DNA from: Nitrospira sp.
Lineage (GTDB): Bacteria; Nitrospirota; Nitrospiria; Nitrospirales; Nitrospiraceae
NCBI GenBank assembly: GCA_024760545.1
Contig: CP060502.1
Coordinates: 1-64,000, forward strand
Direction of reading: 5' to 3'
DNA length: 64,000 nucleotides
Shown here: piece after piece, positions 3,950-52,202 of the stretch
Numbering within the stretch: position 1 is the first letter of the stretch
Layout of the letters: the number at the start of each line of letters is the position of its first letter
The notes under the pieces: generated by a model
Seen by the model: the letters and a program-made list of their open reading frames with translations, nothing else
Told to the model about the DNA's origin: nothing
Databases searched by the model: none
Program-made: the position numbers and the translations under genes

Positions 3950-3965
3950 CTATAAGGAGATTGTG

Positions 3966-6900
3966 ATGGAAATCGCCCGCTTCTATACCAAACGTCAATC
4001 GGATCCCTACGCCGACCAAACGTACGTCGAACGGACCTCACAACCTCCCGGCAAAACCACCCCAATCAGTGTGCTGGCCCCGCGCAGCTGGTCTCAAACG
4101 GCCGTCGATATTCTGGTGCAAAAGTACATGCGCAAAACCGGCGTCCCTCAACCCGGCTCTGACCGGGTAGGCCGAGAGACCGATGCCCGGCAAGTCTTCC
4201 GGAGGTTGGCCGACTGTTGGACGATGTGGGGACGCCGAGCGGGGAACTACTTCCTGACAGAGGAGGATGCGCAAGCCTTCAACGATGAAATGCAGTACAT
4301 GCTGGCCCATCAGATTGGGGCGCCCAATTCGCCTCAATGGTTCAACACCGGGCTCTCACTCGCCTACAGCATCAAAGGCCCAGCGCAGGGGTTATGGCGC
4401 TGGGATCCACAGCAACAGGACACCGTGGAAGTCCGCGATTCCTACGAATGTCCGCAGGCCAGTGCCTGTTACATCCAGTCCATTGCAGACAATCTCGTCA
4501 ATGAGAACGGGATCATGAACCTCTGGACTCGCGAGGCGCGACTGTTCAAGTTCGGATCGGGCAGCGGGACCAATTTCTCGGCCCTCCGCGGTAAAGGCGA
4601 ACGCCTCTCCGGGGGCGGCGAGAGCTCCGGCCTGATGTCCTGGCTCAAAGTTGGGGATACCGCCGCCGGCGCGATCAAATCCGGGGGCACCACCCGCCGC
4701 GCGGCCAAGATGGTCATCCTCAACATCGATCATCCCGACATCGAAGCCTTCATCAATCTCAAAGTCCAAGAAGAGCAGAAGGTCGCCGCCCTGGTTGTCG
4801 GGTCCCATCTGTGTGCCACGCATCTCAATAAAATCATGCAGGCGGCCTGGATCACGGAAGAAGGCCGCGAGTTCGTCCAACCCAACCCGAAATTCAACAC
4901 GGGTCTCAATGAAGCCATCCGCGCTGCACGAGTTGCCCGGATCCCGGAAACGTACATCCAACGAGCCCTCAGCTTTGCCAAGAAAGGCCAGCGGAATTTT
5001 GCCTTCTCTGTCTATGACCTTAGATGGGAAGGAGAGGCCTACCAGACCGTCACGGGCCAGAACGCCAACAACAGTATCCGCCTGACCAAGGCCTTTCTCG
5101 ATGCCGTCAAAACCGATGCGACCTGGAATCTCACCCATCGAACTGATGACAGGATCGCCAAGACCGTGCGCGCGCGGGACTTGTGGGATCAAATCTGCGC
5201 GGCCGCCTGGCAGTGCGCCGACCCCGGCATTCAATACGATGACATCATCAACGAATGGCACACGACGCCGGCACAAGGGAAAATCACAGCCAGTAACCCC
5301 TGTGTCACGGGCGATACGCTTGTCGCGACCGTCAAAGGCTGGCGTCGAATCGAGGACATCGCCAGTGACACGGAGATCATTGGGAGCGATGGACACCTGC
5401 ATCCCATCAATCGGAGCTTCATCACCGGCTTCGAGCACGTGTGGAGGGTTTGCACGTCCGACGGATATGAACTCAAAGCCACGATCAATCACCTGGTCAC
5501 GACCAAGAATCGTGGCGATGTTCCCGTGGGCGAGCTTGAGCATGGCGATATTCTCGTCCTCTCCGCTGGTCAATTCGGGGCACGATCAGTCGAACCCAAC
5601 CTGGCCTTTGCCATCGGGCTCGCCGTGGGGGATGGGTGTGTATCGCATTTCGATACCAAGTATGGACGCCGCTCGAGCATCAATTTGACCATGCATCATG
5701 ACGAAGCACCGGTTCTCGCGACGGCGGCCGCGGGCATCCAACGTCAGAAGGATTTGCACTATGCCCTGGCTCGTTGTGAAGGCCGCTATGTTCCTCGACC
5801 CACCTCAGTGTTCCACGTCCCAACGACGTCACGCGTGACATGTGGCGCTCCGTCCGTAATTAAAGATTTTTCTACATATGCCATTCTGGACGAAGGATCG
5901 AGCAATAAACGTTTTACGCCGGCGGCGTTCCAATTAGACAAGCCATCGCTTGCCCAGGTGCTGAGAGGGCTCTACACCGCGGACGGCACGGTGGCCAACT
6001 ATGGAGACAAATCGCAGTACATCGCCCTCGATTCTTGTTCGCTCACGCTCTTGCAGCAAGTGCAGGTGCTGCTGCTCTCCTTTGGGATTAAATCCAAGCT
6101 GTACCGCGATCGACGTAGAGGCAACACCATCGCCGAATTGCCGAGCGGCAAGGGCTGGTACCGCCCTTATGTCGTCAAAGAGATGTACTCCTTGCGCATC
6201 TCACGCTCCTCTCGCCTTCTGTTTGAGCGAGAGATCGGCTTCCACCCGGACAGCCCGAAGGCCGCGAGGCTGCGCCAGTTGAATGAGGAGGTGGAGTGTT
6301 ACCAAGACCCTCTGACCACGAAGTTCGAGCGCTTGGAATGGGCGGCGCAAACGATCGTCTATGACCTCACGGAACCCGCCACGCAGCACTTCGTCGCGAA
6401 TGGCTTCGTCGTGCACAACTGCTCAGAATTTCTTTCAAATGACGATACCTCATGTAACCTGGCGTCGCTCAATCTCGTCAAATTCTTGAAACCCGACGGC
6501 ACCTTCGATCTTGAAGCCTATCGACACGCCATTCGGCTCTGGACCATCGTGTTAGACATCACAGTCTTCATGGCCTCGTATCCCAGCCGCGCGATCGCGG
6601 AACGGACCGCGAAACTCCGTCAACTCGGACTGGGCTACGCCAATCTCGGCGCCGTACTCATGCGAATGGGGCTGCCCTATGATTCCGACCAAGCCCGGGC
6701 GGTTGCCCAAGGCCTCACCGCCATCCTCACCGGCGAAGCCTATGCGACCAGTGCCGATCTCGCTCTCGAGCTGGGCCCCTTCGAATATTATGCTGAGAAC
6801 CGGGACGCGATGCTCCGGGTCATCCGGAACCACCATCGCGCCGCCCATGGCCAGAGTGATGGCTACGAAGGACTCTCGGTCCTCCCCCGTCCGCTCAATA

Positions 6901-8447
6901 CCGCCCTCTGCCCGGCCGCCCTCGCGGAAGCCGCCCGTAACAGCTGGGATACCGCCATCAGAAAAGGCTCCGTCTCTGGATTCCGTAACGCGCAAGTGAC
7001 CGTGCTCGCCCCGACCGGAACGATCGGGCTCGTGATGGATTGCGATACCACGGGCGTTGAACCCGATTTCTCCCTGGTGAAGTACAAAACCTTGGCCGGC
7101 GGCGGCACGATGAAGCTGATCAATGAGTCGGTCCCCCTTGCGCTACGCACCCTGGGCTACCCCGCTGCAGCGGCAGACAGCATGACACGCTATATCGTCG
7201 GGACAGGCACACTCCAGGACTGTCCCACCATATCCGTTAACCGCCTGCGACAGTGCGGACTCTCAGACGCCGCACTCGACCGAATTGAAGCGGCGCTGCC
7301 ATCCGTTCTCGATGTCACCATGGCCATCACGCCCGAGATCATCGGACTCGAATGGTGTCAACAACACGTCGGGGTCTCCTCTGAGGAGTTGCAATCTCCA
7401 CACTTCAGTCTGCTCCAACGGCTTGGGTTTAGCCCCGACGCCATCACGACCGCCAATCGCTATGCCTGTGGAACCTTGACGATCGAAGGCGCCCCGCATC
7501 TCAAGGCCGAACACCTTGCCGTCTTCGACTGTGCGGTCCCCGGAGGTGCGCTCGGGACCCGCTCCATCGCACCCGAAGGGCACGTCAAAATGCTCGGCGC
7601 CGTCCAAGCGTTCCTGAGCGGCGGCGTGAGCAAAACCATCAACATGCCGGCCGGCGCCGAGGTCGAAGACGTCGCCCATGTCTACCAGCTGGCTCATGAC
7701 CTCGGCGTGAAATGTATCGCGGTGTACCGCGACGGCTCGAAACTCAGCCAACCGCTGAATGCGATCGGCACCGGCGAGCTCGCCCAAGCCGTGGAACAAC
7801 ACAATATTCCCAAAGTCGCACAGCACCTGGCCTCACTCAGCGTCGAGCGGGGAAAGCACCGCCCATTACCGAACAAACGCCAGGGCTACACACAAAAAGC
7901 GATCATTGGCGGACACAAACTTTATATCCGCACCGGCGAATATGCGGATGGGACGCTCGGCGAGATCTTTCTCGACATGCATAAGGAAGGCGCCGCGTTC
8001 CGCAGCTTGATGAACTGCTTTGCCATCGCCATTTCCATGGGACTGCAGTACGGCGTGCCGCTGGAAGAATTCGTCGAAGCCTTCACCATTATGCGCTTCG
8101 AACCCAATGGCCCGGTCTCTGGCCACAACCAAATTAAGATGGCGACGTCGATCATGGATTACGTCATGCGTGATCTCGCCATCAACTATCTGAACCGGCA
8201 GGATCTTGCGAACATCAAGATGACCGGCGAAGACATGCGCGGCGACTCGGTCAAACCATATATCAAGACGACTCCTCTCCGTGAGACAGCGCCTTCATCG
8301 ATGCTCGATCGGGAGCTCGCCGAGCAGGCCCGCGCCAAAGGCTATACGGGCGACCCCTGCCCGGAATGTCTGCGGTTCACGTTGGTCCAACGAGGCACCT
8401 GTAAAACCTGCGTCACCTGCGGCGCCAATAGCGGAGGCTGTAGTTAG
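3966..8447 (+). CDS. nrdJ: adenosylcobalamin-dependent (class II) ribonucleotide reductase with an internal intein
   Basis: Reduces ribonucleotides to deoxyribonucleotides using B12-generated thiyl radical chemistry. ATG 3966 is preferred over the overlapping GTG 3963 because AAGGAGA then sits five bases away. The precursor is 1493 residues; removal of the 373-residue intein (446-818) leaves 1120, normal for large NrdJ. Recognisable features are [13 protein letters not shown], the active-site segment ASNP-CSE formed after splicing, [12 protein letters not shown], the loop with APTGTIG, and a C-terminal cysteine tail (CPEC ... CKTC ... CGANSGGC) that re-reduces the active site or binds zinc. 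A plasmid-borne copy would supply dNTPs to a replicon that also carries dnaN, primase and helicase. Confidence 0.93.
5301..6419 (+). other. intein with LAGLIDADG homing endonuclease inside NrdJ
   Basis: In-frame 1119-bp insertion encoding residues 446-818. The N-terminal splice block starts [10 protein letters not shown]; the C-terminal block ends [10 protein letters not shown] followed by extein Cys, the canonical HN/C junction. Internal blocks [10 protein letters not shown] (about 548) and [10 protein letters not shown] (about 666) are the two dodecapeptide motifs of a LAGLIDADG endonuclease with both acidic residues kept. The downstream +1 cysteine is the reductase radical cysteine, so the enzyme is inactive until splicing. 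An AT-richer patch around 5860-5930 differs from the surrounding extein. Confidence 0.93.
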
Positions 8448-9927: not shown

Positions 9928-10845
9928 ATGAACATGAATGGCATAAAGAGAAAAACGAGTATCGGCTCTATCCGAACGAACGACACGATGACCCACGGAC
10001 GACTCCGACTGTCGGGGATCGGGGTCATCAAACTGCGCGGCGGGGCACGCACTCCGGGCATTCCGAAAACGTGTGAGATCCTATCTAAAGCCGGACGCTG
10101 GTACGCCTCGATGACGATCCTGTGCACCCCCAGCCGATCCTGTGGCACCAAGGCCGCCGGCTTTGACTTAGGAACAGAGACATTCCTGACGCTCGCCGAA
10201 TCGAATGGGACCATTCGGACGATTGACAATCCGCGTGTCTTGCGAACCAGTCTCCCCGCGCTCACACACGCCCAACGGGCTGTCAGTCGGAAACAAAAAG
10301 GTTCAAAGAATCGCAAGAAAGCCGTCCGCCGCGTGGCCCGTATCCATCGTCGGATTGCCAATCAGCGACGAGAATTTCTCCACCAAACCAGTCATCGATT
10401 GGTTCAAGAGTACGGACTATTAGCGACCGAAGACCTCTCGATAAAGAACCTCACGGCGGTCGGCGGCCGCCGGAAACGAGGCCTCAATCGAGAAGTGCTG
10501 AGTGTCGCGTTGAGTCGGTTCCTCAGAATACTGGCGTGCAAAGCGGAAGAAGCTGGCAGCTGGTATGTCGCGTTGTCGCCTCGGACTCTCAAACCCACAC
10601 AGACGTGTCATCAGTGTGGCCGACAGGAGAAGAAATCCCTGTCGGACCGACAGCACGTCTGCCCCTGTGGGGTGAGATGTGGACGGGACGAAAACGCCGC
10701 GCGTGTCTTGGTCCATTGGGCGTTGATCGGCAATGCCCCGGGTTCGGAACGAGCCCGCTGTGGAGAGCCGAGCGCTGGCCTCGATCACACGATCGAGACG
10801 CAACTCAGCTCGATGAAGCAGGAATCTCCCTCCAGAGCCGCGTAA
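9928..10845 (+). pseudogene. decayed TnpB (IS605 OrfB) with N-terminal deletion
   Basis: The open frame (305 residues) covers the RuvC part: GFDLGTETFLTLA (first Asp), LLATEDLSIKNL (Glu), a zinc ribbon CHQC ... CPCGVRC and GRDENAARVL (last Asp). The usual N-terminus is missing. Its start motif EYRLYPNE is encoded at 9957-9980 in a different frame directly before the surviving middle part (GRLRLSGIGVIKLRG), implying a deletion of roughly 100 codons plus a frame change. Catalytic residues remain, so a shortened protein could still be made, but it is probably inactive. It sits between the DUF4019 gene and the 11-20 kb block and is a different subtype from the TnpB at the window start. Confidence 0.8.
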
Positions 10846-10962: not shown

Positions 10963-11250
10963 GTGACCCCCCACCCACCCACCAACGACACATCGCCTTC
11001 TCAACCTCAGGCGCGGACACCCCGTTCTCCCTGGTATCAACACTGGAAAGATATTGCGGATATGACAATGAACATCCTCCCTCATGAGCCCCGCGTCAAA
11101 ATGATCGCCACCATGCTCGATCGCTGCGACATGGCTTATCAGAAGAAGGACGAAGTGGGATTCGTTCGGTTGAAAAAGCAGCTGCGCAATCTCATCAATG
11201 CGTCCAACCCGAGGCCGCCTAAACCTGCCTCACGACACCGAACCTCTTAA
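10963..11250 (+). CDS. small hypothetical protein
   Basis: 95 residues from GTG 10963; I do not recognise it. The N-terminal 25 residues are proline/serine-rich and disordered-looking. The centre (WKDIADMTMNILPHEPRVKMIATMLDRCDMAYQKKDEVGFVRLKKQLRNLINA) predicts two or three amphipathic helices, a fold compatible with a small adaptor. It lies directly behind the TnpB right end, which may have replaced its promoter. The spacing to the ATPase gene is 126 bp. Confidence 0.55.
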   Translation: MTPHPPTNDTSPSQPQARTPRSPWYQHWKDIADMTMNILPHEPRVKMIATMLDRCDMAYQKKDEVGFVRLKKQLRNLINASNPRPPKPASRHRTS

Positions 11251-11376: not shown

Positions 11377-12969
11377 ATGTCTTCCACGCTCATCGATCGC
11401 TTCCGAAAAGCGCTCAAGTCCAGCGTGCCACTGATCGCCATCACTACGCCCGATCCGGCAATGACCATTGCGAGTCTGCTCACCGTCCGCCCCGCCGAAC
11501 TGGTCGATGAGGACTACGCCGTGCTGCAGTGGGACACCGTCGACGGCCTCACCGTAACCGCCGCCGAAGACCAACTTTCTCCACATCCACCGCACCTCGT
11601 CAGCGACCAAGTGAAGACCGCCTTGATCAAAGATCAATCGATCGCCGCAGGCATCAAAAACCTCGCCTTCGCCCTGACCCACGCGAGAAAGCTGCCCTCG
11701 AACACCATGCTCTTCGTCCATAACGCCCATCGCTTTCTGCATGACACGGCTGTCATGCAAGCCGTCTGGCATCTCCGGGACCACTTCAAGAATACCGGCA
11801 ACACCCTAATCCTGCTCGCCCCTCATCTCAAAGTCCCGGTCGAACTCCTGCACGACGTCGTCGTTCTCGACGATCCCCTGCCGGGTCGCGAGCAGCTCCG
11901 CGACATCATCTTGCTCCAGTACGACAACGCCAAACAGACCAACGCCGCCATCCCCGACCCCGCTCCCGACCAACTCGATCACGCCGTCGATGCGGTCCAT
12001 GGACTGTCCGCCTTCGCCGCCGAACAAGCGATCGCCATGTCTTTTACGGCAAAAGGGATCTGCCTCCCCAAGCTCTGGGAGCACAAGTATCAAGCGATCG
12101 AACACACGCCGGGGCTGAAAATCTACCGAGGCGCCGAACGCTTCGACGATATTGGCGGGGTGACCCACATCAAACAATTTCTCCGGCAGATCCTCACTGG
12201 CCGCGCTAAGCCCGGCGGCGTCGTGTTCCTCGATGAGCTCGAAAAGGGGATCGCCGGTGCAAACAGCACCCACGGCGATAACACCGGCGTCTCGCAAGAC
12301 ATTCACAAGCAGCTCTTGGAATTCATGCAGAACGAAGATGCCACTGGCATCATCATGGTCGGCTTACCGGGGACCAGTAAGAGCATGGTGTCCAAAGCCG
12401 CCGGCAAGGAAGCCGACATCCCCACGATCGAATTCGATCTGGGCGGCGTCAAAAGCGCCAATGTCGGGGCCTCCGAGCACAATATGCGTCAAGCACTCAA
12501 AGTCATCGGCACGATCACGAACCACGCCCCTTTATTTCTCGCCACCTGTAATAGTCTGCAGGCGATTTCGCCGGAACTCCGGCGCCGATTCCGCCTCGGC
12601 ACGTTTCTCTTCCCCTTGCCGTCGCGCGAGGAACGGGAGGCCATTTGGTCGATCTACCAACGGAAGTACGAGCTCACCGAAGACCCGGGCAAGCTTCTCG
12701 ACGAGCAATGGACCGGCGCCGAAATACGCCAATGCGCCGATATCGCCTGGCGACTGAATATCTCGCTCGCCGAGGCTGCACACTACATTGTTCCCGTGGC
12801 GATCAGCGCCAAAGAGGGCATTGCGTCCCTTTACGACCAGGCTCACCACGCCTTTCTCTGTGCCAGCTATCCAGGTCCCTTCAACAAAGATCGCACCATT
12901 GATCCCAAACCCGTCCCCACTGGCCGACGGATGCGGACGATCGCACCCGCCAAAGAAGGCCAAGCGTAA
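11377..12969 (+). CDS. Ycf46-like AAA+ ATPase with permuted core (Walker B before Walker A)
   Basis: 530 residues from ATG 11377 with AAGGAG at 11365-11370. Residues 1-230 resemble the Ycf46-type N-terminal domain (PLIAITTPDPA, LQWDTVDGL, MLFVHNAHRFLHD, LKVPVELLHDVVVLDDPLP). The core order is abnormal: the Walker B-like VVFLDELEK (282-290) and its following helix come first, then the P-loop GLPGTSKS (329-336), then the sensor-1 strand LFLATCN (386-392) and the arginine-finger region ELRRRFR (400-406). In standard AAA+ proteins Walker A precedes Walker B by about 50 residues. All key residues seem present, so it should bind and hydrolyse ATP. First gene of a co-directional block ending at dnaN. 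I recall similar permuted ATPases in some large phages, unverified. Confidence 0.85.
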   Translation: MSSTLIDRFRKALKSSVPLIAITTPDPAMTIASLLTVRPAELVDEDYAVLQWDTVDGLTVTAAEDQLSPHPPHLVSDQVKTALIKDQSIAAGIKNLAFALTHARKLPSNTMLFVHNAHRFLHDTAVMQAVWHLRDHFKNTGNTLILLAPHLKVPVELLHDVVVLDDPLPGREQLRDIILLQYDNAKQTNAAIPDPAPDQLDHAVDAVHGLSAFAAEQAIAMSFTAKGICLPKLWEHKYQAIEHTPGLKIYRGAERFDDIGGVTHIKQFLRQILTGRAKPGGVVFLDELEKGIAGANSTHGDNTGVSQDIHKQLLEFMQNEDATGIIMVGLPGTSKSMVSKAAGKEADIPTIEFDLGGVKSANVGASEHNMRQALKVIGTITNHAPLFLATCNSLQAISPELRRRFRLGTFLFPLPSREEREAIWSIYQRKYELTEDPGKLLDEQWTGAEIRQCADIAWRLNISLAEAAHYIVPVAISAKEGIASLYDQAHHAFLCASYPGPFNKDRTIDPKPVPTGRRMRTIAPAKEGQA

Positions 12970-13012: not shown

Positions 13013-13942
13013 ATGACCACCACGACGGCCATGCCCCCCACTCAAGACCTCACGCGTGAACAATTGTTCTCCAAAGCCGCGTGCATGACCCTCTCCATCC
13101 ATAAAGTCGGCTTCTCTCGCAAAACCAAAGTCGCCATCAAATCCAAAGCCGACCAGACCCTCGTCAAACGCACCAAATGGATCATCGATTGTCCAGAATA
13201 TCGCGCCATCACGCGCCTGGATGACAGGGTCAAGCGTGACTGTGAAAAATTCAAGCTCCCAGCCACGATCGGCCGTGGCATGATGCTGATCGCCGCGAAG
13301 GATCTCATGGAGGTCTACCGCATCCTGGACGAGTACCAAATGCAGCGTCATACGCTCATCGACACGTTCTGCAGCGTCTACCTGGAACGCAAGCTGGAAG
13401 CCAAAGACAGGCTGAAAGATTTGTACGTCGAAACGGAATATCCCACATTGGCTGAAGTCCGCGACAAATTCCGCGTCGATATCCAATTTCTAACGTTCGA
13501 TCTACCCGGATTCCTGCAGAATGTTGATCGCACCCTCGCCCAGCGGGAACGAGAAAAGATGGCCGAACTCTTCAAAGGATACGGCGAAGAAATCCGAGGA
13601 GGATTACGCGACATGCTGCAAGGGCTGGTCGATCATCTTCTTGGCGCACTCTCCTCCGAGAGCGATGGCCGCCCCAAGACCCTGCGCGCCGCCGCCCTCA
13701 CCAACCTGACCGAGTTCCTGACGACATTCGACCGCCGGAACGTCACCGACGACAGCGAACTCGATAAGGTCGTCACACAACTCAGGAACACCCTGGCCGG
13801 GATTACCCCGAAAGGGTTGAAAAAAGATCTTCAATACCAAGAGATCATTCGAACCAGCCTCCAGTCCGTTCGCGCTCAACTCACCAGCCTGGTTGTGCCA
13901 CAAGCCACCAGGCGCATTCTCACCAGCCAAGACGATCTCTAA
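13013..13942 (+). CDS. helical protein of unknown function, partner of the permuted ATPase
   Basis: 309 residues from ATG 13013 (GAGGAG at 13001-13006). No catalytic motif is visible. Composition and periodicity suggest an almost wholly alpha-helical protein with long amphipathic helices (IGRGMMLIAAKDLMEVYRILDEYQ; REREKMAELFKGYGEEIRGGLRDML). It lies 43 bp behind the AAA+ gene, a position typical for a substrate or adaptor partner. A relation to DUF3150, which I recall next to AAA+ genes on plasmids and phages, is possible but unverified. Confidence 0.7.
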   Translation: MTTTTAMPPTQDLTREQLFSKAACMTLSIHKVGFSRKTKVAIKSKADQTLVKRTKWIIDCPEYRAITRLDDRVKRDCEKFKLPATIGRGMMLIAAKDLMEVYRILDEYQMQRHTLIDTFCSVYLERKLEAKDRLKDLYVETEYPTLAEVRDKFRVDIQFLTFDLPGFLQNVDRTLAQREREKMAELFKGYGEEIRGGLRDMLQGLVDHLLGALSSESDGRPKTLRAAALTNLTEFLTTFDRRNVTDDSELDKVVTQLRNTLAGITPKGLKKDLQYQEIIRTSLQSVRAQLTSLVVPQATRRILTSQDDL

Positions 13943-13975: not shown

Positions 13976-14497
13976 GTGACAACAACCCCACGATCCCCGA
14001 CCATGATGCACCCAGTCGCCCTGACATCGTCGCCGCACCAATCGCGTATCAGAAGACCCCAGGACGTCCTGCTCTATCTCAGGACTCTTCGCCTCAACAT
14101 TCCGCCCGGCGACACGATCCTACTTGCGCTCGACCAACACCATAGCCCGGTCGGTCGGCACTCCTTTCCCTATACCCCACTCCATCCCCTGGGACCGACA
14201 CCCCAGGACGTGTTCAAGATCGCCTTCACGCAACGCGCGAACCGACTGATTCTCGTCTCGTCACACCCGCGGATTCGACGAGGCGCCTTTACCCCGACTG
14301 ACGATCAACTGAATTATGCCGCCCAATGTTCACTGGCCGGGCAACTGTTGAATCTGCCGCTGGTCGATCATCTGATGCTCAACGAAACCGAACTGGAGTC
14401 CTTGCTCCTCAATTTCCACGACAAGCTCTCCCGCTATGCCTTGCGCTATTCGCAGCAACAGGCCAATCCCTTATTGATAAACCTATGCCCAAATTAG
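13976..14497 (+). CDS. RadC/JAB-like domain protein with lost metal site
   Basis: 173 residues from GTG 13976 (AGAGGGG seven bases upstream). The fold signature of the RadC JAB1/MPN domain is clear: DVFKIAFTQRANRLILV, then a degenerate metal motif SSHPRIRRGAFTPTDDQL, then LAGQLLNLPLVDHLMLNETE. Active JAMM proteins have HxH at the first position and an upstream glutamate. Here the first His is Ser and the Glu is not apparent; only the second His and the Asp remain. It is likely a non-catalytic scaffold. The primase gene starts inside its end (13-bp overlap), so the two are translationally coupled. Confidence 0.7.
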   Translation: MTTTPRSPTMMHPVALTSSPHQSRIRRPQDVLLYLRTLRLNIPPGDTILLALDQHHSPVGRHSFPYTPLHPLGPTPQDVFKIAFTQRANRLILVSSHPRIRRGAFTPTDDQLNYAAQCSLAGQLLNLPLVDHLMLNETELESLLLNFHDKLSRYALRYSQQQANPLLINLCPN

Positions 14498-15565: not shown

Positions 15566-17695
15566 GTGTCACACGCCACGCCGATCACCGTCCCGCTCGC
15601 GCACTTTCTTGAAACCTTCTCCGATGCACTCTGCACGACCACCGCCAATCAGCTCACCCCGCAATTTACCCCTGAAGTCCTTGAGGCCGCGCGTCCGACC
15701 TTGCGGCAATTTGGCGAACCCCTCTATCCGGCCCAAGCCAACGTGGCCACCGCGCTGGCTCATGCGTTCCACACCCACAACAGCGCCATTTGCTCAGCGG
15801 AAATGAGCACCGGGAAGACCCGCATTGGCACCGCCGTCGCCGCCCTGCTCCGCTCTCATCGGACCCTGATCTTTGCCCCACCCCACTTGGTCGGGAAATG
15901 GAAAGACGAAATCCAGACGCTCCTTCCGGGCGCCCATGCAGCCATTCTGCGGAGCATCACCGATGTGCTCCAGTTCGCCACCCTCCCGACAGACGGACGC
16001 TGGCCGCTCTTCGGCATTCTCAGTCGCGAGCGAGCAAAACTCAGCTACGCCAAGCGTTGCGCCATCAACCCCAAGGTCACCCGGATTGATACACGTACCT
16101 TTCATCATTTCCATTGCCCCCAGTGCGGCATCCGCATCGACGATAAGGACGGCATCCCACAAACCCCCAGGAGCCTCAAGCCAGGAACACACTGCACCGC
16201 ATGTCAGAGCCCGCTCTGGACCTACGATCCCAACGGCCCACGGCGCGTCGCCCTGGCCGACTACCTTGGGAAAAAGCATCCCCGACTGTTTGATCTCATC
16301 CTGGTCGATGAAGTGCAGGAAGAAAAATCGATTGGGAGTGCCCAGGGGCTCGCCTTCGGCCTGTTGGTCCAAAAATGTCGACGCGCCCTCGCGCTCACCG
16401 GCACCCTGACGTCCGGAAAGTCCACCTCGATCTTTCACATCTTGTGGCGCATGAATCCGGCACTCAAAGCCGCCTTCAAACACACCGACGAACCACGGTG
16501 GGTGGACTTGTACGGCACATGGGAAACCCGCACGACCGAAGAAGACATCCACCGGGTGCTGCTCGTCGGCAAAGAATCCAAACGGCGCGTCCATGTCACC
16601 GTTCGCGAACGCCCCGGCATCTCCCCGCAGATCATTCCCCACCTGGTCTCCAACACAGCCTTCTTTCAGTTACGAGATCTTGGTATCGCACTCCCGCCCT
16701 ACACAGAACACGTGCAAGAATGCCAGTTCTCTTCACAACTACACGACAACTACGAACGGCTCAAAAATGCGGCTCGCCAATTCATTCCCATTGCCCGACG
16801 CAACAAGGATGGACATCTCTTCAGCAGCCTCGTCCAAGCATTATTGGCTTACCCAGATCGCGCCACCCAAGGCGAAACCATCACCAATCGCGACGGCGTT
16901 CCCGTCTTTACGTTAGACCCGCTTCCAGAAGACGTCGTGCTTCCCAAGGAACAGGCCCTCATCGATCTCATTCTCCGCGAGCGTGCACAAGGACGACGCG
17001 TGCTCGTCTACTGCACCCACACGCAAACCAAAGACATCACAACACGCCTGCAACGACTCTTTGAGGCCGCCGGCCTTCGCAGTTTGATCCTGACCTCCGC
17101 CGTCACCCCAGAACGACGCATGAAATGGATTACCGATCACACCAAGAAAGGCCTCGACGCCCTCATCTGCAACCCCAAATTGGTATCGACCGGTTTAGAT
17201 TTACTCGACTACCCCACCATCGCCTGGATCGAAGTCGACTACTCCACGTACCTCGTGCGCCAAGCCTCACGTCGTTCGTGGCGCATCAAGCAAACCCGCC
17301 CGGTCTATGTGCACTACTTTCTCTACAAAGGCAGTGTGCAAGAACATGCCTGGGCACTCGTCGCCGCAGGCATCAACGAAGGCCTCAAAACCGAAGGGGA
17401 TCTCACCGCGGAAGGACTCAACCAATATCAGCAACCAGATGACCTGATGACCCAGCTCGTCAAACAAGTCCTGGATCGCAACGCCTCGGTCCTCAGCGCG
17501 GAAACCATGTTTGCCCAGCTGGCAACGCACTATCAACAAGATCAGGCCAGCGACACGCCGGACATTCCAGAGCCTGTCAGTGCGCAGACGTACCAGGATA
17601 CACCGCCTGAGCTGCCACTATTGATTCAGCCAACGACCAAAACCAGCAAGCGGAACCATGACGCCAACATCCAACTCAACCTCTTTGCGGCCTAA
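15566..17695 (+). CDS. SNF2/DEAD-type superfamily 2 helicase with zinc ribbon
   Basis: 709 residues from GTG 15566 (GAGGAGG nine bases upstream). Motif I is AEMSTGKTRIG (about 78-88), motif II LVDEVQ (about 245-250), and motif III-like ALTGTLTSGKS follows. A four-cysteine insert (CPQC at about 184, CTAC at about 211) lies between motifs I and II. The C-terminal RecA domain (VLVYCTHTQTKDITTRLQRLFE ... LVSTGLDLLDYPTIAW ... RQASRRSWRIKQT) is complete. SNF2-like relatives remodel nucleoprotein or drive plasmid/phage replication. It is followed by a hypothetical gene after 4 bp. Confidence 0.85.
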   Translation: MSHATPITVPLAHFLETFSDALCTTTANQLTPQFTPEVLEAARPTLRQFGEPLYPAQANVATALAHAFHTHNSAICSAEMSTGKTRIGTAVAALLRSHRTLIFAPPHLVGKWKDEIQTLLPGAHAAILRSITDVLQFATLPTDGRWPLFGILSRERAKLSYAKRCAINPKVTRIDTRTFHHFHCPQCGIRIDDKDGIPQTPRSLKPGTHCTACQSPLWTYDPNGPRRVALADYLGKKHPRLFDLILVDEVQEEKSIGSAQGLAFGLLVQKCRRALALTGTLTSGKSTSIFHILWRMNPALKAAFKHTDEPRWVDLYGTWETRTTEEDIHRVLLVGKESKRRVHVTVRERPGISPQIIPHLVSNTAFFQLRDLGIALPPYTEHVQECQFSSQLHDNYERLKNAARQFIPIARRNKDGHLFSSLVQALLAYPDRATQGETITNRDGVPVFTLDPLPEDVVLPKEQALIDLILRERAQGRRVLVYCTHTQTKDITTRLQRLFEAAGLRSLILTSAVTPERRMKWITDHTKKGLDALICNPKLVSTGLDLLDYPTIAWIEVDYSTYLVRQASRRSWRIKQTRPVYVHYFLYKGSVQEHAWALVAAGINEGLKTEGDLTAEGLNQYQQPDDLMTQLVKQVLDRNASVLSAETMFAQLATHYQQDQASDTPDIPEPVSAQTYQDTPPELPLLIQPTTKTSKRNHDANIQLNLFAA

Positions 17696-17699
17696 CACG

Positions 17700-18275
17700 A
17701 TGACCACTGATAACCTCATTCGCATCTCCACAGAAGGATACGACGCCATTGTCGAATCCTATGCGGTCACCCCTAACACACACGAAGTCTGCATGCTGTC
17801 CATCGCCGGACAACCAGACGCCATCAAAGCCCTCCGAGCTGCGCTGAGTATCGGGCTCACCGTCAAGATCACCGGACTCGGAGACATCCACTGGCCCAAA
17901 CAAGCGGACTCCGTCTTTACGTTCGTACACAAACGACTCCCCTCTGGCGCTGTCGCAGCGCTCTGGCTCCCTCAACTCGGCACCTCCGTCGGCATTCAAC
18001 ATGACACGAAAGCGTACATTCTGCAGCGACACCACAGAGCCGAGACGCCACCGCTCAACTTCGTGGCCATCCTTGATCGAGTCCTCTCTTGCCCCATTCT
18101 CAAAGATTGGGCGACTCCGCTCTGGACCGCTGCACAGCAACACCAATGGGTCCGCCCGCTCCACACCTATAACTGCATGGCGTGGGAATTCCATCCCCAG
18201 ACCGAGGCCATCATTGAATGGCTACAGGCCTACCTACGCACCACCACAGAGGCCGCTCCTCAAGTAGCGGCATAA
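17700..18275 (+). CDS. hypothetical protein in the replication block
   Basis: 191 residues from ATG 17700, only 4 bp after the helicase stop, so it is almost certainly co-translated. I do not recognise it. Several beta-strands are likely in the first half (EVCMLSIAGQPDAIKALRAAL, VKITGLGD), and the second half contains tryptophan-rich helices. No cysteine pairs, nucleotide-binding or nuclease motifs are visible. Position suggests an accessory replication or DNA-binding factor. Confidence 0.65.
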   Translation: MTTDNLIRISTEGYDAIVESYAVTPNTHEVCMLSIAGQPDAIKALRAALSIGLTVKITGLGDIHWPKQADSVFTFVHKRLPSGAVAALWLPQLGTSVGIQHDTKAYILQRHHRAETPPLNFVAILDRVLSCPILKDWATPLWTAAQQHQWVRPLHTYNCMAWEFHPQTEAIIEWLQAYLRTTTEAAPQVAA

Positions 18276-18335: not shown

Positions 18336-19394
18336 ATGCACATCGCCGGCAGAAGCATTTCCGGATTCTATCCGACTCCACCTCGTATCCTCTCCTCTGT
18401 CAGCTCCCTCATCGCCAACCCCGCGCATCATCTAGGACGACTCCTCGACCCCTGCGCCGGCAACGGCATTCCCCTTCACTACCTCGCTCAAGCATGGAAC
18501 CTGAGCCCTTATGGAATCGAACTCGACCGACAACGCGCCGCTCAATGCCGTACGGCACCGGCCACCATCCTGCACTCGGACGCCCATCTCTGCGAGGTCT
18601 CGCGAGACAGCTTCTCCTGCCTCTTCCTCAATCCCCCCTATGACTTCGCTGGACAAGGCGAACGTACGGAATATCTCTGGCTGAAACGCTGGACCCCGAC
18701 TCTGCAACCAGAGGGGCTCCTGATCTACATTATTCAAGAGCATCAATACACCGAAAAAGTCCTCTACTATCTCAGCACTTACTACCGCGAAGTCAGCCTC
18801 TTTCGCTTCCCACCGGAAGAATATGAGGCTTTTCGCCAAACCGTCTTCATTGGGAAACGGGTTCGCACCCCCAACCCATCCGAAACCGTCAAACGTCAAC
18901 TCTGGCGCCTCTTGCGCACGAACAACCTCCCCATTCTCCCGGTCGACACTGCGCCTCGCTACACCATTCCTTCACTACTCATTCGAGGCGAAATCACCTT
19001 TTCCAGTGACTGGATCGATCCGGCTGACATCTATGCCGAAGCCCATGACCATGGACTCTGGCAAGATCGCCATATCACAGAACTGCTCACCTTCGATCAA
19101 CATAAAGTGATCAATCCCCTCCTGCCGCTTCGCAAGGGACACTTAACTCGCCTCATCTCGGCCGGCCTCTACAACAACACCGTCATCGAACACAACAACC
19201 TCCGATGGATCATCAAAGGACGGGCGAGGAAAATCACCAAAGAACTCCCTCCGATCATCGATCTGGTCCAGACCAAAGACGGACCAGAAGAACGTACACA
19301 CCACCGCACCATCGAACAGTATGTCCCTGAAATCCGAGCCTTCGATTTAACTCCAGGCCCCAACTACGGTCGTTTCGTTGTTATTGAGTGTTAA
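18336..19394 (+). CDS. SAM-dependent DNA adenine methyltransferase-like protein (DUF6094 type)
   Basis: 352 residues. Motif I for AdoMet binding is LDPCAGNGIP (about 37-46) and the catalytic motif IV is LNPPYD (about 98-103), the NPPY form of N6-adenine or N4-cytosine methyltransferases. The N-terminal FYPTPPRIL is typical of DUF6094 methyltransferases found in plasmid and phage replication neighbourhoods. No restriction endonuclease gene lies nearby, so it is an orphan enzyme that may mark the element's DNA or its origin. The ribosome-binding site is weak. Confidence 0.8.
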   Translation: MHIAGRSISGFYPTPPRILSSVSSLIANPAHHLGRLLDPCAGNGIPLHYLAQAWNLSPYGIELDRQRAAQCRTAPATILHSDAHLCEVSRDSFSCLFLNPPYDFAGQGERTEYLWLKRWTPTLQPEGLLIYIIQEHQYTEKVLYYLSTYYREVSLFRFPPEEYEAFRQTVFIGKRVRTPNPSETVKRQLWRLLRTNNLPILPVDTAPRYTIPSLLIRGEITFSSDWIDPADIYAEAHDHGLWQDRHITELLTFDQHKVINPLLPLRKGHLTRLISAGLYNNTVIEHNNLRWIIKGRARKITKELPPIIDLVQTKDGPEERTHHRTIEQYVPEIRAFDLTPGPNYGRFVVIEC

Positions 19395-19433: not shown

Positions 19434-20564
19434 ATGATCATTGAATTCCCACGCACCACCCTGCTTCAGACCCTCAAACTCATGCACAGCATTCTTGACC
19501 GCAAAAACGCCTCTGCGCCACTTACCATGATCCACGTCACCACAAGCCACACCGGGGTTCGGCTCGCTGCGACCGATCTCGAACTCGGTCTCCAACGCAC
19601 CCTTCCCATTCCCCTCATGGAAGAACGCGCCTTCCTCATTCCTGACGCCCCAATCTATGAGTTCATCAAAGAACTCACGTCCGACACCATCCGCTGGTCC
19701 ATCGATGACGACCACCACATCACCATCACCTCTGGAAAAGCCAAGGCCAAATTCAACGGCATGAAGGCTGAAGACTACCCAGCGCTCCCCCCGCTCCCTG
19801 ATCCCTTCATCTTCAGCCTCCCCGCCAAGGACTTGTCACAGCTACTCACGGAAACTCTCCCAGCCGTCGGCGAGGCGGACGGCCGCTACATCTTGAACGC
19901 CATCAAGCTGACCATTTCCAACGCTCCCTCCCCAACGCTCCAAATCGTCGGTACAGACGGTCATCGCCTTGTCATCACACAACAAAACACTGGCACCTGG
20001 CTCACACGCCACCATGACACCCGGCACCTCCTCATCCCGAAAAAAGCCGGGAAGGTTCTGCAAACACTTATCCCGGATAAAGAACCACCCCTCATTGCCA
20101 TCGGAGCCAACCAATCCCTCGCAGGCTTTCAGATCGGCGACTATCTCCTGACAAGCCGGCTGCTCGACGGCAGTTACCCGGCCTATGACAGGATCATCCC
20201 CACGCTGACCACGGCGCGACTGACTGTTTCGAAAACCGTCTTGGAAGATTCGATTCGACGAGTCTCAGTGATTGGAGGGAAAGACACCAAACCGATGGAA
20301 CTGTCCATTGCAGACAATCATCTGACTCTGCATGCACACAACGTCGATGTAGGAGAAGCCACCGAAACTCTCGAAACTCCAACTTCGACACAGCCATTCA
20401 AGGCAGGATTCAACGCGCAGTATCTCCTCGATGCCCTAGAAACCATGCCGGGAGAGCACTGTCAGCTATACATGGAATCGCCTCAGACACCATGCGTCCT
20501 GACAACCCCTGATCGCACAACCCAATTCAAACACATCATCATGCCACTCACCCTCACCTCATAA
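19434..20564 (+). CDS. dnaN: DNA polymerase III beta sliding clamp
   Basis: 376 residues, full length, from ATG 19434 with AAGGAG at 19423-19428. Three clamp domains are evident; typical segments are LAATDLELGLQRTLPI, VGTDGHRLVITQQ, YLLTSRLLDGSYPAYDRIIP and the C-terminal HIIMPLTL. The ring tethers replicative polymerase to DNA. A plasmid-encoded clamp beside primase, helicase and ribonucleotide reductase suggests a replicon that can partly equip its own replisome. It is the last gene of the co-directional block. Confidence 0.93.
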   Translation: MIIEFPRTTLLQTLKLMHSILDRKNASAPLTMIHVTTSHTGVRLAATDLELGLQRTLPIPLMEERAFLIPDAPIYEFIKELTSDTIRWSIDDDHHITITSGKAKAKFNGMKAEDYPALPPLPDPFIFSLPAKDLSQLLTETLPAVGEADGRYILNAIKLTISNAPSPTLQIVGTDGHRLVITQQNTGTWLTRHHDTRHLLIPKKAGKVLQTLIPDKEPPLIAIGANQSLAGFQIGDYLLTSRLLDGSYPAYDRIIPTLTTARLTVSKTVLEDSIRRVSVIGGKDTKPMELSIADNHLTLHAHNVDVGEATETLETPTSTQPFKAGFNAQYLLDALETMPGEHCQLYMESPQTPCVLTTPDRTTQFKHIIMPLTLTS

Positions 20565-48473: not shown

Positions 48474-49886
48474 CTAACCCTCAGATTTCGGTTCGGAGCC
48501 ACTCCGATCCACCGCCGCTACGGCCCAGGGCACTTTCAACGTGGCCGCATCACGTTTCACGAGGTCATAGAGATAACTGCCTGGGTTGATCCGCTCGCCA
48601 CGGGCGACACGCTCCTTGACCTCATGGAACCGTCGCCAAATCATGACATGTGGCACCGAATTGATCGCACGTTGCCAGGTTTTCACCCAGATATGCGGAT
48701 CTTTGCGACGTCCCGAAAACTCCAAGATCAAGTCTAACAGTTTGGCGGCCGAGGCCGCCGTCTCCTCCGCGCTCCGGTTCTCAATCTGCGAATCGGCGAT
48801 CAACACCATCGGATCGCTCGTATCTTCGAGCATTTTCATCGCTGGCCGATCATCCCCGACGCCATAATAGGCCCGCCGTTCCTCTAGTTGCTGCTCCGCC
48901 TCCCGCCACGCCGGTCCGGCTTCCCACATCAACATATATTCCCGAGGCTTGCTCCCCTGGACTGGCACGAGATCCCATGAACTCAGAAACTGACGGGCCA
49001 TCAATTCCTCATGCGCCGGCCCCAATTGCTGACGGACTTGGGAAATCGCGGTATATCGAGTCAGCTCAAACCCCTCCACCAACTCCGAATAACTTTGCAT
49101 CGCGGATCCACCGCCCAGATAAAAGAGATGCGACAGCAACTGATGCAAGACCTTCGTGATATGGCCCTTCACATCTTGAAGCAGGTGATGATCGACCACA
49201 AAACAATTCCCCGCCAACAGACTCTCGCAGTACCAATCATCCAAATGTATCTCATAGCCGTCGAGGAGCAGTCCCTTCCCCGTCGCGGTCCCGGGCAAGG
49301 TGACGTTCCGAAGAATTCTCATAAAGGACGACCGAGGGGACTTCATCGAAACCTCGCCGGTTTTCCGTGTCTTGCCCGATCCCACGCCGATCATCAAGCC
49401 AGCAAGCCGCATCAAACACCGATTCAGTTCCTGATATTCCCGCCCCCCTTTTTCCTTCCCCGCCCGCTCCAGGACCTCGTGCCCCTGAAATCGAACCACC
49501 GGATCTAACGTACGGGACTTCTTGATCCGATCTAACAGCAGACCCTCTAACCCCAAGAACAACTCAAAATCCACGGCGGTGGGAAAGCCTAAGTCTCCCG
49601 ACGCATACGCGACCAAGGTCATTTTGCGAATCGTCCCATCCCGCCAGAGATACCGAACCATTTCCTTTTCATGGACCGATTTTTGAGAACGGCGAGAGGA
49701 CGTATTCGCGGACCAGAAATGCAGCGATCCCAGAATCCGTTCCCGCAAGAGATACTGAGAGGTTGCGTGTCCAAATGAAGGGACGAGTCTCCCGTAGGAG
49801 AGTATTTCGCGCGCATTCTCTGTCAGAGACTTTTGCGACTCAGCGTCCATAGCGCGTAACGTTCTTTCTTCTCTTTCGTTATTCAT
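48474..49886 (-). CDS. repA: plasmid replication initiator (RepA/RPA-like)
   Basis: 470 residues from ATG 49886 (a second ATG at 49850). The segment VRYLWRDGTIRKMTLVAYASGDLGFPTAVDFELFLGLEGLLLDRI plus YQELNRCLMRLAGLMIGVGSG is typical of winged-helix RepA/RPA initiators; the second winged-helix region and a long tail follow. Its upstream region (49969-50278) holds iterons and a DnaA box, and parB/parA lie beyond, strongly supporting the role. It should bind the iterons to melt the origin and control copy number. Confidence 0.75.
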   Translation of the reverse strand: MNNEREERTLRAMDAESQKSLTENAREILSYGRLVPSFGHATSQYLLRERILGSLHFWSANTSSRRSQKSVHEKEMVRYLWRDGTIRKMTLVAYASGDLGFPTAVDFELFLGLEGLLLDRIKKSRTLDPVVRFQGHEVLERAGKEKGGREYQELNRCLMRLAGLMIGVGSGKTRKTGEVSMKSPRSSFMRILRNVTLPGTATGKGLLLDGYEIHLDDWYCESLLAGNCFVVDHHLLQDVKGHITKVLHQLLSHLFYLGGGSAMQSYSELVEGFELTRYTAISQVRQQLGPAHEELMARQFLSSWDLVPVQGSKPREYMLMWEAGPAWREAEQQLEERRAYYGVGDDRPAMKMLEDTSDPMVLIADSQIENRSAEETAASAAKLLDLILEFSGRRKDPHIWVKTWQRAINSVPHVMIWRRFHEVKERVARGERINPGSYLYDLVKRDAATLKVPWAVAAVDRSGSEPKSEG

Positions 49887-49968
49887 AACGTAGAAAGGGA
49901 CAACTTCATCCTCGATTGACCGAGCAGAAAAGGCCTAATTTCAAGATGTTCACTCTACATCCGTGAAG

Positions 49969-50278
49969 TTCAATGACTTCCCGTCCCTTCAATCCCTTCC
50001 CGTTCAGATCTTCAATGACTTCCCGATCAAACCGGAAAAACCTTCAATGACTTCCCGCCTCATTCACCAGCTTCCCGTCCAACCTTCAATGAATTCCCAT
50101 GGCCCTGTGGATAACCTCCTCTGGCTCTACCATTACCAGGGGTGGGACCTGCCCTCCCACTCCCTAGAGAAGAAAATTCGATGAAAATTCCACGATGTAT
50201 CTTGTGAGATACAGAAGAGGGGTAGCCGAGATACAACGGGAATTCATTGAAACCTTTCCACCACGGGAATTGATTGAA
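49969..50278. other. oriV: iteron-type plasmid replication origin
   Basis: Iterons of consensus TTCAATGACTTCCCG occur at 49969, 49988 (degenerate), 50011, 50043, 50063 (degenerate) and 50085, spaced about 19-32 bp, mostly near two helical turns. Two inverted copies (CGGGAATTCATTGAA at 50237, CGGGAATTGATTGAA at 50264) face parB. A perfect DnaA box TGTGGATAA lies at 50106-50114 and an AT-rich stretch at about 50165-50200. Located between rep and parB. The layout matches theta-replicating iteron origins. Confidence 0.85.
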
Positions 50279-50310
50279 ACTTTCTACCACCGTCACAGAT
50301 CTACCATGGT

Positions 50311-51369
50311 CTATTCATGGCTACCCGCGTCAGCCACACGCCCAAACCGATCCAGAACCTCCAGAATTTGCTGAATCCCATCCCGGACACTCTCCACCTT
50401 ATCTTGTTGATTCGGGGACCAGCGAATCGCAGCCACCACCCCTTTACTGCCATTCTCCCCGCGCAGCGTCACCCGGATACATTGTGCCCCTTGATTAAAC
50501 CGCGGCCGGCGGTGAACCTCTTGCCGTATTTTCTCACTCGCCCAGCGGTCTTTCACGGCCTGCCGGGCAATCCGCTCCATCTTTGCCGGCTGATCCATCA
50601 ACGGCAGCAAGGCCTCCGCATGACGCGAGGTCATATCACTGCCGGGAGCAAACAGAATGTCGAGGACAGGGGGCGGAAGTTTGAGCAAACTCAATGCCCG
50701 CGAGATCCGGGTCTTATGACAGCCGACTTTCTCCGCTAGTTGAATCTGCTGATAGCCGTGGCGCTGAAGCAGCGCCTGAAAGGCGCGCGCTTCTTCGAGA
50801 GGAGACAAGTCCTTCCGAACCAGATTGTCAATCAACGCCTGCGCCGCCGCTTGACCGGTTGACGTCTCCCGCACCAGCGCCGGTATCGTTCCATGGCCCA
50901 ACAACTGCGTTGCGCGCCACCGCCGTTCCCCAGCAATCACTTCAAATTTCTCCCCCACCTGACGTACTTGAATGGGATTCAACACCCCATGCTGGCGAAT
51001 GGACTCCAACAACTCTTGATCCGCTTCTGGATCAACGACCTGTCGAGGCTGATCCGGACTCGGGACCAACCGATCGAGCGGAATCTCATAGACCTGCTCG
51101 GCAACCCGGCCGGGCAGGGCGCTCTCAGCTGGGACCGGCGCCGGCGCAATCCCTAACGATTCCGCAACTACCGCGCGCCGCTCCACGTCCTTCGTGCCGG
51201 AGTCTTCTACCGCTGAAGCCGGAGGCCCAGCGGTCCCCGGATCCTGAGGAGGCACTCCCAACATATCCCAGGTTGAAAAACGCCGGGCTTGACGATCAAA
51301 TCCCTGTTCAAGCTCGGCCAAATGTGGCGAGGGTTTCTTTGTTTTCGTCTCTTTCTTTGGGTGCGTCAT
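50311..51369 (-). CDS. parB: ParB partition protein
   Basis: 352 residues. ParB/Srx NTPase-like domain with IPLDRLVPSPDQPRQ, LLESIRQHGVLNPIQV and the GERRWRATQL box, then a helix-turn-helix region (YQQIQLAEKVGCHKTRISRALSLLKLP) and a C-terminal domain. CTP-dependent clamp that binds parS and spreads. Ends 59 bp from the iteron region; starts 2 bp after the parA stop, so the two are co-transcribed from upstream of parA. Confidence 0.93.
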   Translation of the reverse strand: MTHPKKETKTKKPSPHLAELEQGFDRQARRFSTWDMLGVPPQDPGTAGPPASAVEDSGTKDVERRAVVAESLGIAPAPVPAESALPGRVAEQVYEIPLDRLVPSPDQPRQVVDPEADQELLESIRQHGVLNPIQVRQVGEKFEVIAGERRWRATQLLGHGTIPALVRETSTGQAAAQALIDNLVRKDLSPLEEARAFQALLQRHGYQQIQLAEKVGCHKTRISRALSLLKLPPPVLDILFAPGSDMTSRHAEALLPLMDQPAKMERIARQAVKDRWASEKIRQEVHRRPRFNQGAQCIRVTLRGENGSKGVVAAIRWSPNQQDKVESVRDGIQQILEVLDRFGRVADAGSHE

Positions 51370-51371
51370 GG

Positions 51372-52202
51372 CTACGCCTCACTCGCCACCAGTTCATCGG
51401 CAAACTCTCGCAAGGGTTTCAAATGCAGCCGCTCCAGCACTTCCCGCCCAAACTGCATATAATCCCGCGCCCCGGTACTCTGACGATCCGATTGAAAGAT
51501 CGTCTTCTTCATGACCTCGGCATCCTGAATCCGCGCCGACGAGGCGATCGCCGTGTGAAACACCAACGGCCCAAACCGCTTTTCAATCGCGTTCCTCATG
51601 GCCTTACACACGTTTTTTCGGCCATCGTGCTTGGTAATCAATACTCCCAAACATGACAGATGCGGGTTCACTTCGTCTTGCGACACGTCCTTGATTACTT
51701 CTTCCAAATCCGCGTACCCGTCGAGACTGTATTTCGAGCCGCTTTCCATCGGCACGATGAAATGGTCGGACGCCACCAACGCATTGACTGTCAGGAACGA
51801 CAGACTCGGCGCACAATCGATCAAGACGATCTCATCTGGACCGATCGCCAATTGACTCAAGCGACGTTTCAGGGCGGACCCAGGGGTCAGCATATGAATC
51901 TTCTGGAGTTCACGATCCACGCGGGTCAACCCGACATGCCCATAGATCAGTCGCACGTCTTCTTCGATGGTCTCATGCCACGGCGCGGCCACCGTGCTGG
52001 CTTTGTCTAATAAGAGATTCGCGGATGTGAATTTTACTTCGTAAGGATCCATCTTTCCCAATGTCGTCGAAGCATTGGCTTGCGGATCAAGATCGATGAC
52101 CAACACAGGATGTCCCAGGCGGGCCAACGCCGCCGCCATGTTAACAACCGTCGTGGTTTTTCCGACTCCACCTTTCTGATTGATGACAGAAATAGTCTTC
52201 AT
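51372..52202 (-). CDS. parA: ParA partition ATPase
   Basis: 276 residues. Deviant Walker A KGGVGKTT (10-17), ALARLGHPVLVIDLDPQANAS and IVLIDCAPSLSFLTVNAL (Walker A' and B). No N-terminal helix-turn-helix, i.e. the short type Ib/chromosomal-like form, so autoregulation would rely on ParB or another factor. It moves ParB-bound plasmids over the nucleoid. The upstream 750 bp hold four GC-rich palindromes. Confidence 0.94.
   Translation of the reverse strand: MKTISVINQKGGVGKTTTVVNMAAALARLGHPVLVIDLDPQANASTTLGKMDPYEVKFTSANLLLDKASTVAAPWHETIEEDVRLIYGHVGLTRVDRELQKIHMLTPGSALKRRLSQLAIGPDEIVLIDCAPSLSFLTVNALVASDHFIVPMESGSKYSLDGYADLEEVIKDVSQDEVNPHLSCLGVLITKHDGRKNVCKAMRNAIEKRFGPLVFHTAIASSARIQDAEVMKKTIFQSDRQSTGARDYMQFGREVLERLHLKPLREFADELVASEA

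What the first reader, a model, noticed from the sequence alone, without database searches (positions are those of the whole stretch)
11377..12969. AAA+ ATPase with circularly permuted core
The Walker B-like strand VVFLDELEK (282-290) comes before the P-loop GLPGTSKS (329-336), and the sensor-1 strand LFLATCN and RRRFR follow. Conventional AAA+ proteins have the order A, B, sensor 1. The N-terminal half still matches the Ycf46 type, so a Ycf46-like ancestor seems to have had its Walker B segment moved in front of the P-loop. It heads a replication-type operon with an unassigned helical partner, so it may be a remodeller dedicated to this element.
Basis: partly seen in the sequence, partly recalled or inferred. 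Interest (0 to 1): 0.8.

Follow-up and report, generated by a model that had tools for sequence, protein, structure and literature searches.

The report
AAA+ ATPase with swapped core segments
This is a molecular motor protein (AAA+ ATPase) in which the segment carrying the ATP-cleaving Walker B motif sits in front of the ATP-binding loop instead of behind it, and about 80 relatives from phages and Nitrospira-group mobile DNA share that order, so a natural protein family seems to have rewired a core whose order is otherwise kept.

Summary
In the 530-residue protein (window 11377-12969) the Walker B block (282-321) precedes the P-loop block (322-382); sensor 1 follows directly and no second Walker B lies there. 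A profile of 83 normally ordered Ycf46-like proteins tiles it completely, in order 1-3-2-4; exchanging the two blocks in silico raises the single-domain score from 105 to 272 bits. It is no artefact: 67 IMG/VR contigs, one isolated tailed phage and Nitrospirota elements show the same order, while 85 of 85 other relatives have Walker B exactly 56 residues after the P-loop. The swapped proteins form one clade, also on the untouched N-terminal domain. Catalytic residues are kept; dN/dS is about 0.1. Strictly, two adjacent core segments are exchanged; the whole domain is not circularly permuted. The 'unassigned helical partner' is a DUF3150 relative, present in 82 of 92 loci. Here the pair heads a replication-type operon on a 273-kb Nitrospira plasmid. 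Best reading: an active AAA+ remodeller working with DUF3150 in mobile elements. Fold placement and function are inferred; no coordinates were available. No earlier description was found in open-access papers.

The parts
11377..12969 (+). AAA+ ATPase of the Ycf46 lineage with exchanged core segments (530 aa)
   Evidence: AlphaFold2 model mean pLDDT 83.5
11377..12219 (+). N-terminal part, residues 1-281: normally placed; profile 8-246; aligned by structure to a second AAA domain of p97/Cdc48 (looks like a degenerate AAA domain without P-loop)
12220..12339 (+). Walker B block (beta3-alpha3), residues 282-321, VVFLDELEK...; displaced in front of the P-loop; predicted strand 281-285 and helix 305-319
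12340..12522 (+). P-loop block (beta1-alpha1-beta2-alpha2), residues 322-382, Walker A GLPGTSKS 329-336
12523..12966 (+). sensor 1 (LFLATCN), Arg-finger loop (RRRFR), beta5 and C-terminal lid; normally placed
13013..13942 (+). DUF3150-family partner (309 aa), two predicted helices of about 40 residues plus a small beta part
   Evidence: homologues on the same strand in 82 of 92 loci; profile of partners hits the annotated DUF3150 protein of L006 at 5e-70, which hits PF11348 at 1e-8; model pLDDT 75; the window protein alone has no Pfam hit
13976..14497 (+). RadC-like JAB protein; relatives also lie near the pair in L006, L023, L103
   Evidence: Pfam RadC 2.7e-9; L023 copy 1.2e-10; cluster C5
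14494..15516 (+). DNA primase-like protein (CHC2 zinc finger, Toprim)
15566..17695 (+). superfamily 2 helicase
18336..19394 (+). DUF6094 methyltransferase
19434..20564 (+). DNA polymerase III beta subunit (sliding clamp)
10963..11250 (+). small conserved gene just upstream, also upstream of the ATPase in L023, L206, L208, L211

Best explanation
A working AAA+ ATPase of the Ycf46 lineage in which two adjacent parts of the core have changed places: normal beta1-alpha1-beta2-alpha2-beta3-alpha3-beta4 has become beta3-alpha3-beta1-alpha1-beta2-alpha2-beta4. SHOWN: the order, its conservation in one clade, retention of the catalytic residues, purifying selection, and the standing link to a DUF3150 gene. 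INFERRED: the fold is kept, because in the parallel AAA+ sheet (order 5-1-4-3-2) all strands start on the same edge, so the three new joins (linker to beta3, alpha3 to beta1, alpha2 to beta4) can be short; the rearrangement arose once, probably by tandem duplication of the beta1-alpha3 stretch followed by loss of one copy of each part, in a DUF3150-linked Ycf46-like protein of a phage or plasmid. The protein most likely forms a ring, as classic AAA proteins do, binds ATP between subunits and remodels or pulls on a protein, with DUF3150 as adaptor or substrate. In the Nitrospirota elements this would serve the element's own DNA replication module (primase, helicase, beta clamp, ribonucleotide reductase); this last step is the least certain (about 0.4).
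For: Order 1-3-2-4 against an independent profile and against p97 in the solved-structure search. Unique optimum for the swap. In all 87 swapped sequences restoring the order raises the best single-domain score (median 82.7 to 245.1 bits). AlphaFold2 with 12 relatives: core pLDDT about 90, strand 281-285, helix 305-319, strand 323-329, helix 335-345, strand 350-353, helix 365-380, strand 385-391. The AAA part matches p97 D2 (3cf0_A) over 202 residues at 2.3 A, Z 16.6. Catalytic residues: Walker A Lys 55/55, Walker B Asp 52 and Glu 54 of 54, sensor-1 Asn 54/54, Arg 47/48 aligned. dN/dS 0.097 against the 75%-identical L103. One clade, SH-aLRT 100, on the re-ordered alignment and on the N-terminal domain alone. 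DUF3150 neighbour in 82 of 92 loci, DUF1257 in 39. A normally ordered Ycf46 lies on the host chromosome (C1:1139016-1140032).
Against: The tools give no coordinates, so that strand 281-285 lies in the beta3 slot is inferred from DSSP, confidence and topology, not measured. The P-loop glycine before the lysine is replaced by A, S or C in 25 of 55 swapped proteins (S in the window protein) and never in 29 normally ordered ones, which could mean altered or weak ATP use. No experiment exists. The replication link is by neighbourhood only and is not seen in the viral loci compared. The C-terminal part alone does not resolve the clade (support 28).
Confidence: 0.82

Rival explanations
1. Artefact: an assembly rearrangement, frameshift or pseudogene made the order look odd.
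For: None found beyond the oddity itself.
Against: Same order in 67 of 70 viral contigs, in phage Tunturi_3, and in Nitrospirota genomes of several genera including a single-contig 4.7-Mb one; open frames without stops; dN/dS 0.097.
Confidence: 0.01
2. The order is real but the core is no longer a proper AAA+ engine: VFLDELEK is a spare or structural segment and the protein is a dead or scaffold ATPase that at most binds ATP.
For: P-loop glycine relaxed in 25 of 55 members and residues lost in the Arg-finger loop; no coordinates to check the site.
Against: Walker A Lys, Walker B Glu and sensor-1 Asn are essentially invariant across a very diverged clade; confident strand prediction for 281-285; no other acidic strand is available.
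Confidence: 0.12
3. The rearrangement happened more than once rather than once.
For: Clade not supported on the C-terminal part alone (28); some long branches.
Against: One side of a branch in three trees, support 100 in two; breakpoints agree in all members.
Confidence: 0.06
4. The ATPase and DUF3150 serve virion assembly or another phage task rather than replication of the element.
For: Most members are in phage contigs; a MoxR AAA plus vWA pair has been proposed for virion assembly in jumbo phages (PMC7824862).
Against: Nitrospirota copies are on a Par/Rep plasmid or beside an integrase, next to primase, helicase, clamp and reductase genes; no terminase found on the plasmid with the families tried; only weak generic AAA hits in PADLOC.
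Confidence: 0.35

Closest known systems
Ycf46-type AAA ATPases (plastid/cyanobacterial ycf46 and bacterial relatives, often with DUF1257 and DUF2997 neighbours)
   Same: Same N-terminal part, P-loop block, Walker B block, sensor 1 and lid by profile; same catalytic residues; DUF1257 relative in 39 of 92 swapped loci
   Different: Walker B block in front of the P-loop; relaxed last P-loop glycine; shorter Arg-finger loop; DUF3150 partner
DUF3150-linked Ycf46-like proteins in normal order: viral contig L001 and Candidatus Manganitrophus plasmids CP114559 and CP114554
   Same: Nearest outgroups in the tree; same DUF3150 and DUF1257 neighbours
   Different: Walker B 56 residues after the P-loop, as usual
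p97/Cdc48, Vps4, fidgetin-like 1 (classic AAA proteins with solved structures)
   Same: AAA fold of model residues 244-493, Z about 16-17; two tandem AAA-like domains over the whole chain
   Different: Normal segment order; the N-terminal half of the query has no P-loop
Circularly permuted GTPases (YjeQ/RsgA and YlqF class), from general knowledge
   Same: Natural reordering of a P-loop NTPase core
   Different: Another NTPase class, with cyclic permutation of the whole G domain; here only two inner segments are exchanged; not compared with any tool here

Membership tests
AAA+ ATPases | Walker A, Walker B, sensor 1 and Arg finger present | tested here: met
   Pfam AAA 6.3e-13; residue counts
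AAA+ ATPases | Order Walker A, Walker B, sensor 1 along the chain | tested here: not met
   Order is Walker B, Walker A, sensor 1
AAA+ ATPases | Core beta sheet of order 5-1-4-3-2 with lid | tested here: inconclusive
   Model matches p97 D2 at 2.3 A over 202 residues, but strand positions could not be measured
AAA+ ATPases | ATP-dependent ring assembly | not testable with these tools
   No experiment or complex prediction
Ycf46-like lineage | N-terminal domain of the Ycf46 type in front of the AAA domain | tested here: met
   Profile 8-246 hit of 105 bits; phrog_8638 over residues 3-270
Ycf46-like lineage | Normal order of the AAA core | tested here: not met
   hence filed as a rearranged variant, not a plain member
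DUF3150 family (partner protein 13013-13942) | Homology to PF11348 | tested here: met
   Indirect: profile of partners hits the L006 protein at 5e-70, which hits PF11348 at 1e-8; direct Pfam scan of the window protein negative
MoxR/CobS-type AAA with VWA partner | VWA-domain partner | tested here: inconclusive
   No VWA hit among the window neighbours scanned; other loci not scanned for VWA
IetA-type defence ATPase | Match over most of the model above cut-off | tested here: not met
   PADLOC and NCBIfam hits are short and far below cut-off

The most novel reading that the evidence does not exclude
The first natural AAA+ clade with a non-standard segment order is not merely tolerant of the change: joining alpha3 to the P-loop strand, and alpha2 instead of the Walker B unit to sensor 1, alters how ATP splitting is coupled to movement, which would explain why the P-loop glycine is free to vary only in this clade and why the clade is tied to DUF3150.
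Probability: 0.25. Interest if true: 0.88.

Novelty: new variant of a known kind. Interest (0 to 1): 0.78.

Why it matters
The order Walker A, Walker B, sensor 1 is treated as a fixed property of AAA+ proteins by annotation tools and evolutionary schemes. A clade of about 80 proteins that breaks it while keeping the catalytic residues is a natural test of which connections in the motor matter. It also explains why such genes are only partly matched by Pfam, NCBIfam and PHROGs profiles, and it gives a clear, testable evolutionary event: one rearrangement, with normally ordered DUF3150-linked outgroups, inside mobile elements.

Tried and rejected
Assembly artefact: rejected by independent occurrences. 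A hidden second Walker B: none in 87 sequences. Duplication intermediates carrying both copies: looked for in 78 loci, none seen; the long member L177 only carries an intein-like insert, and so does L191, a normally ordered one. Whole-domain circular permutation: rejected because the N-terminal and C-terminal parts keep their places. A viral-contig scan with Tunturi_3 alone gave nothing. PF03354 and PF03237 in the own genome gave nothing and phrog_2 only one weak chromosomal hit; these families also miss most of the viral contigs, Tunturi_3 included although it has an annotated terminase, so they are poor markers here. Fold search of the partner gave no significant match. Paper searches for permuted AAA+, Ycf46 and DUF3150 found no description of this arrangement in what was read, only engineered permutants, permuted methylases and permuted GTPases; only open-access papers are held.

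Full report
WHAT IS THERE. Pfam's best stretch covers only a fragment of the AAA domain (325-376) and PHROGs mainly the N-terminal half (phrog_8638, 3-270), as expected if the pieces are out of order.

IS THE ORDER REALLY CHANGED. I built a profile from 83 normally ordered Ycf46-like proteins, most of them fetched from public genomes, and scanned the query and its relatives. All pieces of the profile are present once, but in order 1-3-2-4: N-terminal part, Walker B block, P-loop block, sensor 1 to lid. Exchanging segments of the query in silico gives a sharp optimum: moving 282-321 behind 322-382 lifts the single-domain score from 104.7 to 271.7 bits; 1,160 grid swaps and 1,487 random swaps give nothing better elsewhere. 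In all 87 swapped sequences (82 distinct) the same operation raises the best single-domain score (median 82.7 to 245.1 bits). Between the P-loop block and sensor 1 only about four residues remain (one member has 163, an intein-like insert), and none of the 87 has a Walker-B-like strand there. A profile search of solved structures shows the same relative to p97.

HOW WIDESPREAD. tblastn in 50,697 phage records gave one full-length swapped relative, in the isolated tailed phage Tunturi_3 (terminase, portal, head and tail genes annotated). A scan of IMG/VR gave 70 loci, of which 67 are swapped and three (L184, L189, L191) normally ordered; for L160, L164, L170, L178 and L181 the profile missed the Walker B block and the order was judged by position and by eye. 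Nine of 296 Nitrospirota genomes carry it, in six genera, one of them in fragments. The plasmid relatives that were read are normally ordered. The host itself has a normally ordered Ycf46 on its chromosome. That the host is a Nitrospira is inferred from the closest named relatives (L023, L024).

ONE ORIGIN. On an alignment with the order restored, 55 swapped proteins lie on one side of a branch with support 100, against 29 normally ordered ones; the nearest outgroup is the viral protein L001, then the Manganitrophus plasmid and Thermovibrio proteins. The N-terminal domain alone, which is not touched by the rearrangement, gives the same split with support 100; the short C-terminal part gives it with support 28 only. 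These are quick trees without bootstraps and hold some long branches.

IS IT A WORKING ENZYME. Walker A Lys is present in 55 of 55, Walker B Glu in 54 of 54, sensor-1 Asn in 54 of 54, and the first Arg of the finger loop in 47 of 48 aligned. dN/dS between the query and its 75%-identical relative L103 is 0.097, and 0.03-0.10 in the separate blocks. Two derived features mark the clade: the glycine before the Walker A lysine is A, S or C in 25 of 55 (never in 29 normally ordered ones), and residues are missing in the Arg-finger loop. AlphaFold2 with 12 relatives gives a confident model (mean pLDDT 83.5, core about 90) in which strand and helix order fits the exchanged topology. The AAA part aligns to p97 D2 over 202 residues at 2.3 A; an aligner that keeps sequence order can use about 215 of the 255 residues there if the displaced block is skipped, so this fits, but does not prove, that the block fills its usual place.

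SURROUNDINGS. Directly downstream lies a helical protein (13013-13942). Relatives of it are on the same strand in 82 of 92 swapped loci (some loci are re-fetched copies of one contig). The profile of these partners hits the Manganitrophus protein annotated DUF3150 at 5e-70, and that protein hits PF11348 at 1e-8. DUF1257 relatives, which also lie beside normally ordered Ycf46-like genes (for instance L006, L008), occur in 39 of 92. In the window, RadC-like, primase, helicase, DUF6094 methyltransferase and beta clamp genes follow. The contig is a second replicon of 273,451 bases with ParA, ParB and an RPA-type initiator (48477-52202), so a plasmid. In G284 (single-contig genome) and G276 a similar module (beta clamp, primase, DUF3150, swapped ATPase, ribonucleotide reductase; in G284 also helicase and methyltransferase) lies beside a tyrosine integrase, so it also occurs as an integrated element.

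MECHANISM. From general knowledge of AAA+ structure, all core strands are parallel and start on one edge of the sheet, so exchanging two strand-helix units needs only short new joins. The likeliest path is tandem duplication of the beta1-alpha3 stretch and loss of one copy of each part; no intermediate was found. I expect a ring ATPase that remodels a protein together with DUF3150. Replication of the element is my first choice of process in Nitrospirota elements; virion assembly or another phage role is the main rival.

LIMITS. Open-access papers only; no coordinates; no experiment; database scans limited by short peptide patterns; partner model of moderate confidence (pLDDT 75, pTM 0.51) with no fold match.

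Noticed in passing
window 3963-8444 (+): Class II (B12-dependent) ribonucleotide reductase with a LAGLIDADG intein; a reductase gene lies near the swapped ATPase in several Nitrospirota loci (L023, L104, L206, L208, L211).
   Followed up: partly
L177, protein residues about 357-519: A swapped ATPase from a viral contig carries an intein-like insert inside sensor 1, close to where the Walker B block used to be.
   Followed up: partly
L191: A normally ordered viral relative carries an intein-like insert inside the P-loop itself, between GVPGC and SGKS.
   Followed up: partly
swapped clade, residue before the Walker A lysine (S334 in the window protein): This normally invariant glycine is A, S or C in 25 of 55 swapped proteins and G in 29 of 29 normally ordered ones.
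   Followed up: partly
L005 11690-12649: The DUF3150 relative of phage Tunturi_3 is annotated as HNH endonuclease, perhaps a misannotation.
   Followed up: no
window 9928-10842 (+): OrfB/TnpB-like protein of IS605 type just upstream of the operon; a similar one lies near the ATPase in L210.
   Followed up: no
window 10963-11250 and 17703-18275 (+): Two genes without family hits that recur around the ATPase in Nitrospirota elements.
   Followed up: no
L206 (G284:C1:2058000-2077999), L208 (G276:C1:45000-60000): Integrase plus replication module around the swapped ATPase: apparently an integrating element of Nitrospirota that I could not name.
   Followed up: partly
model residues 2-245 of the window protein: The N-terminal half aligns by structure with a second AAA domain of p97/Cdc48 although it has no P-loop, so Ycf46-type proteins may be degenerate double-AAA proteins.
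   Followed up: no
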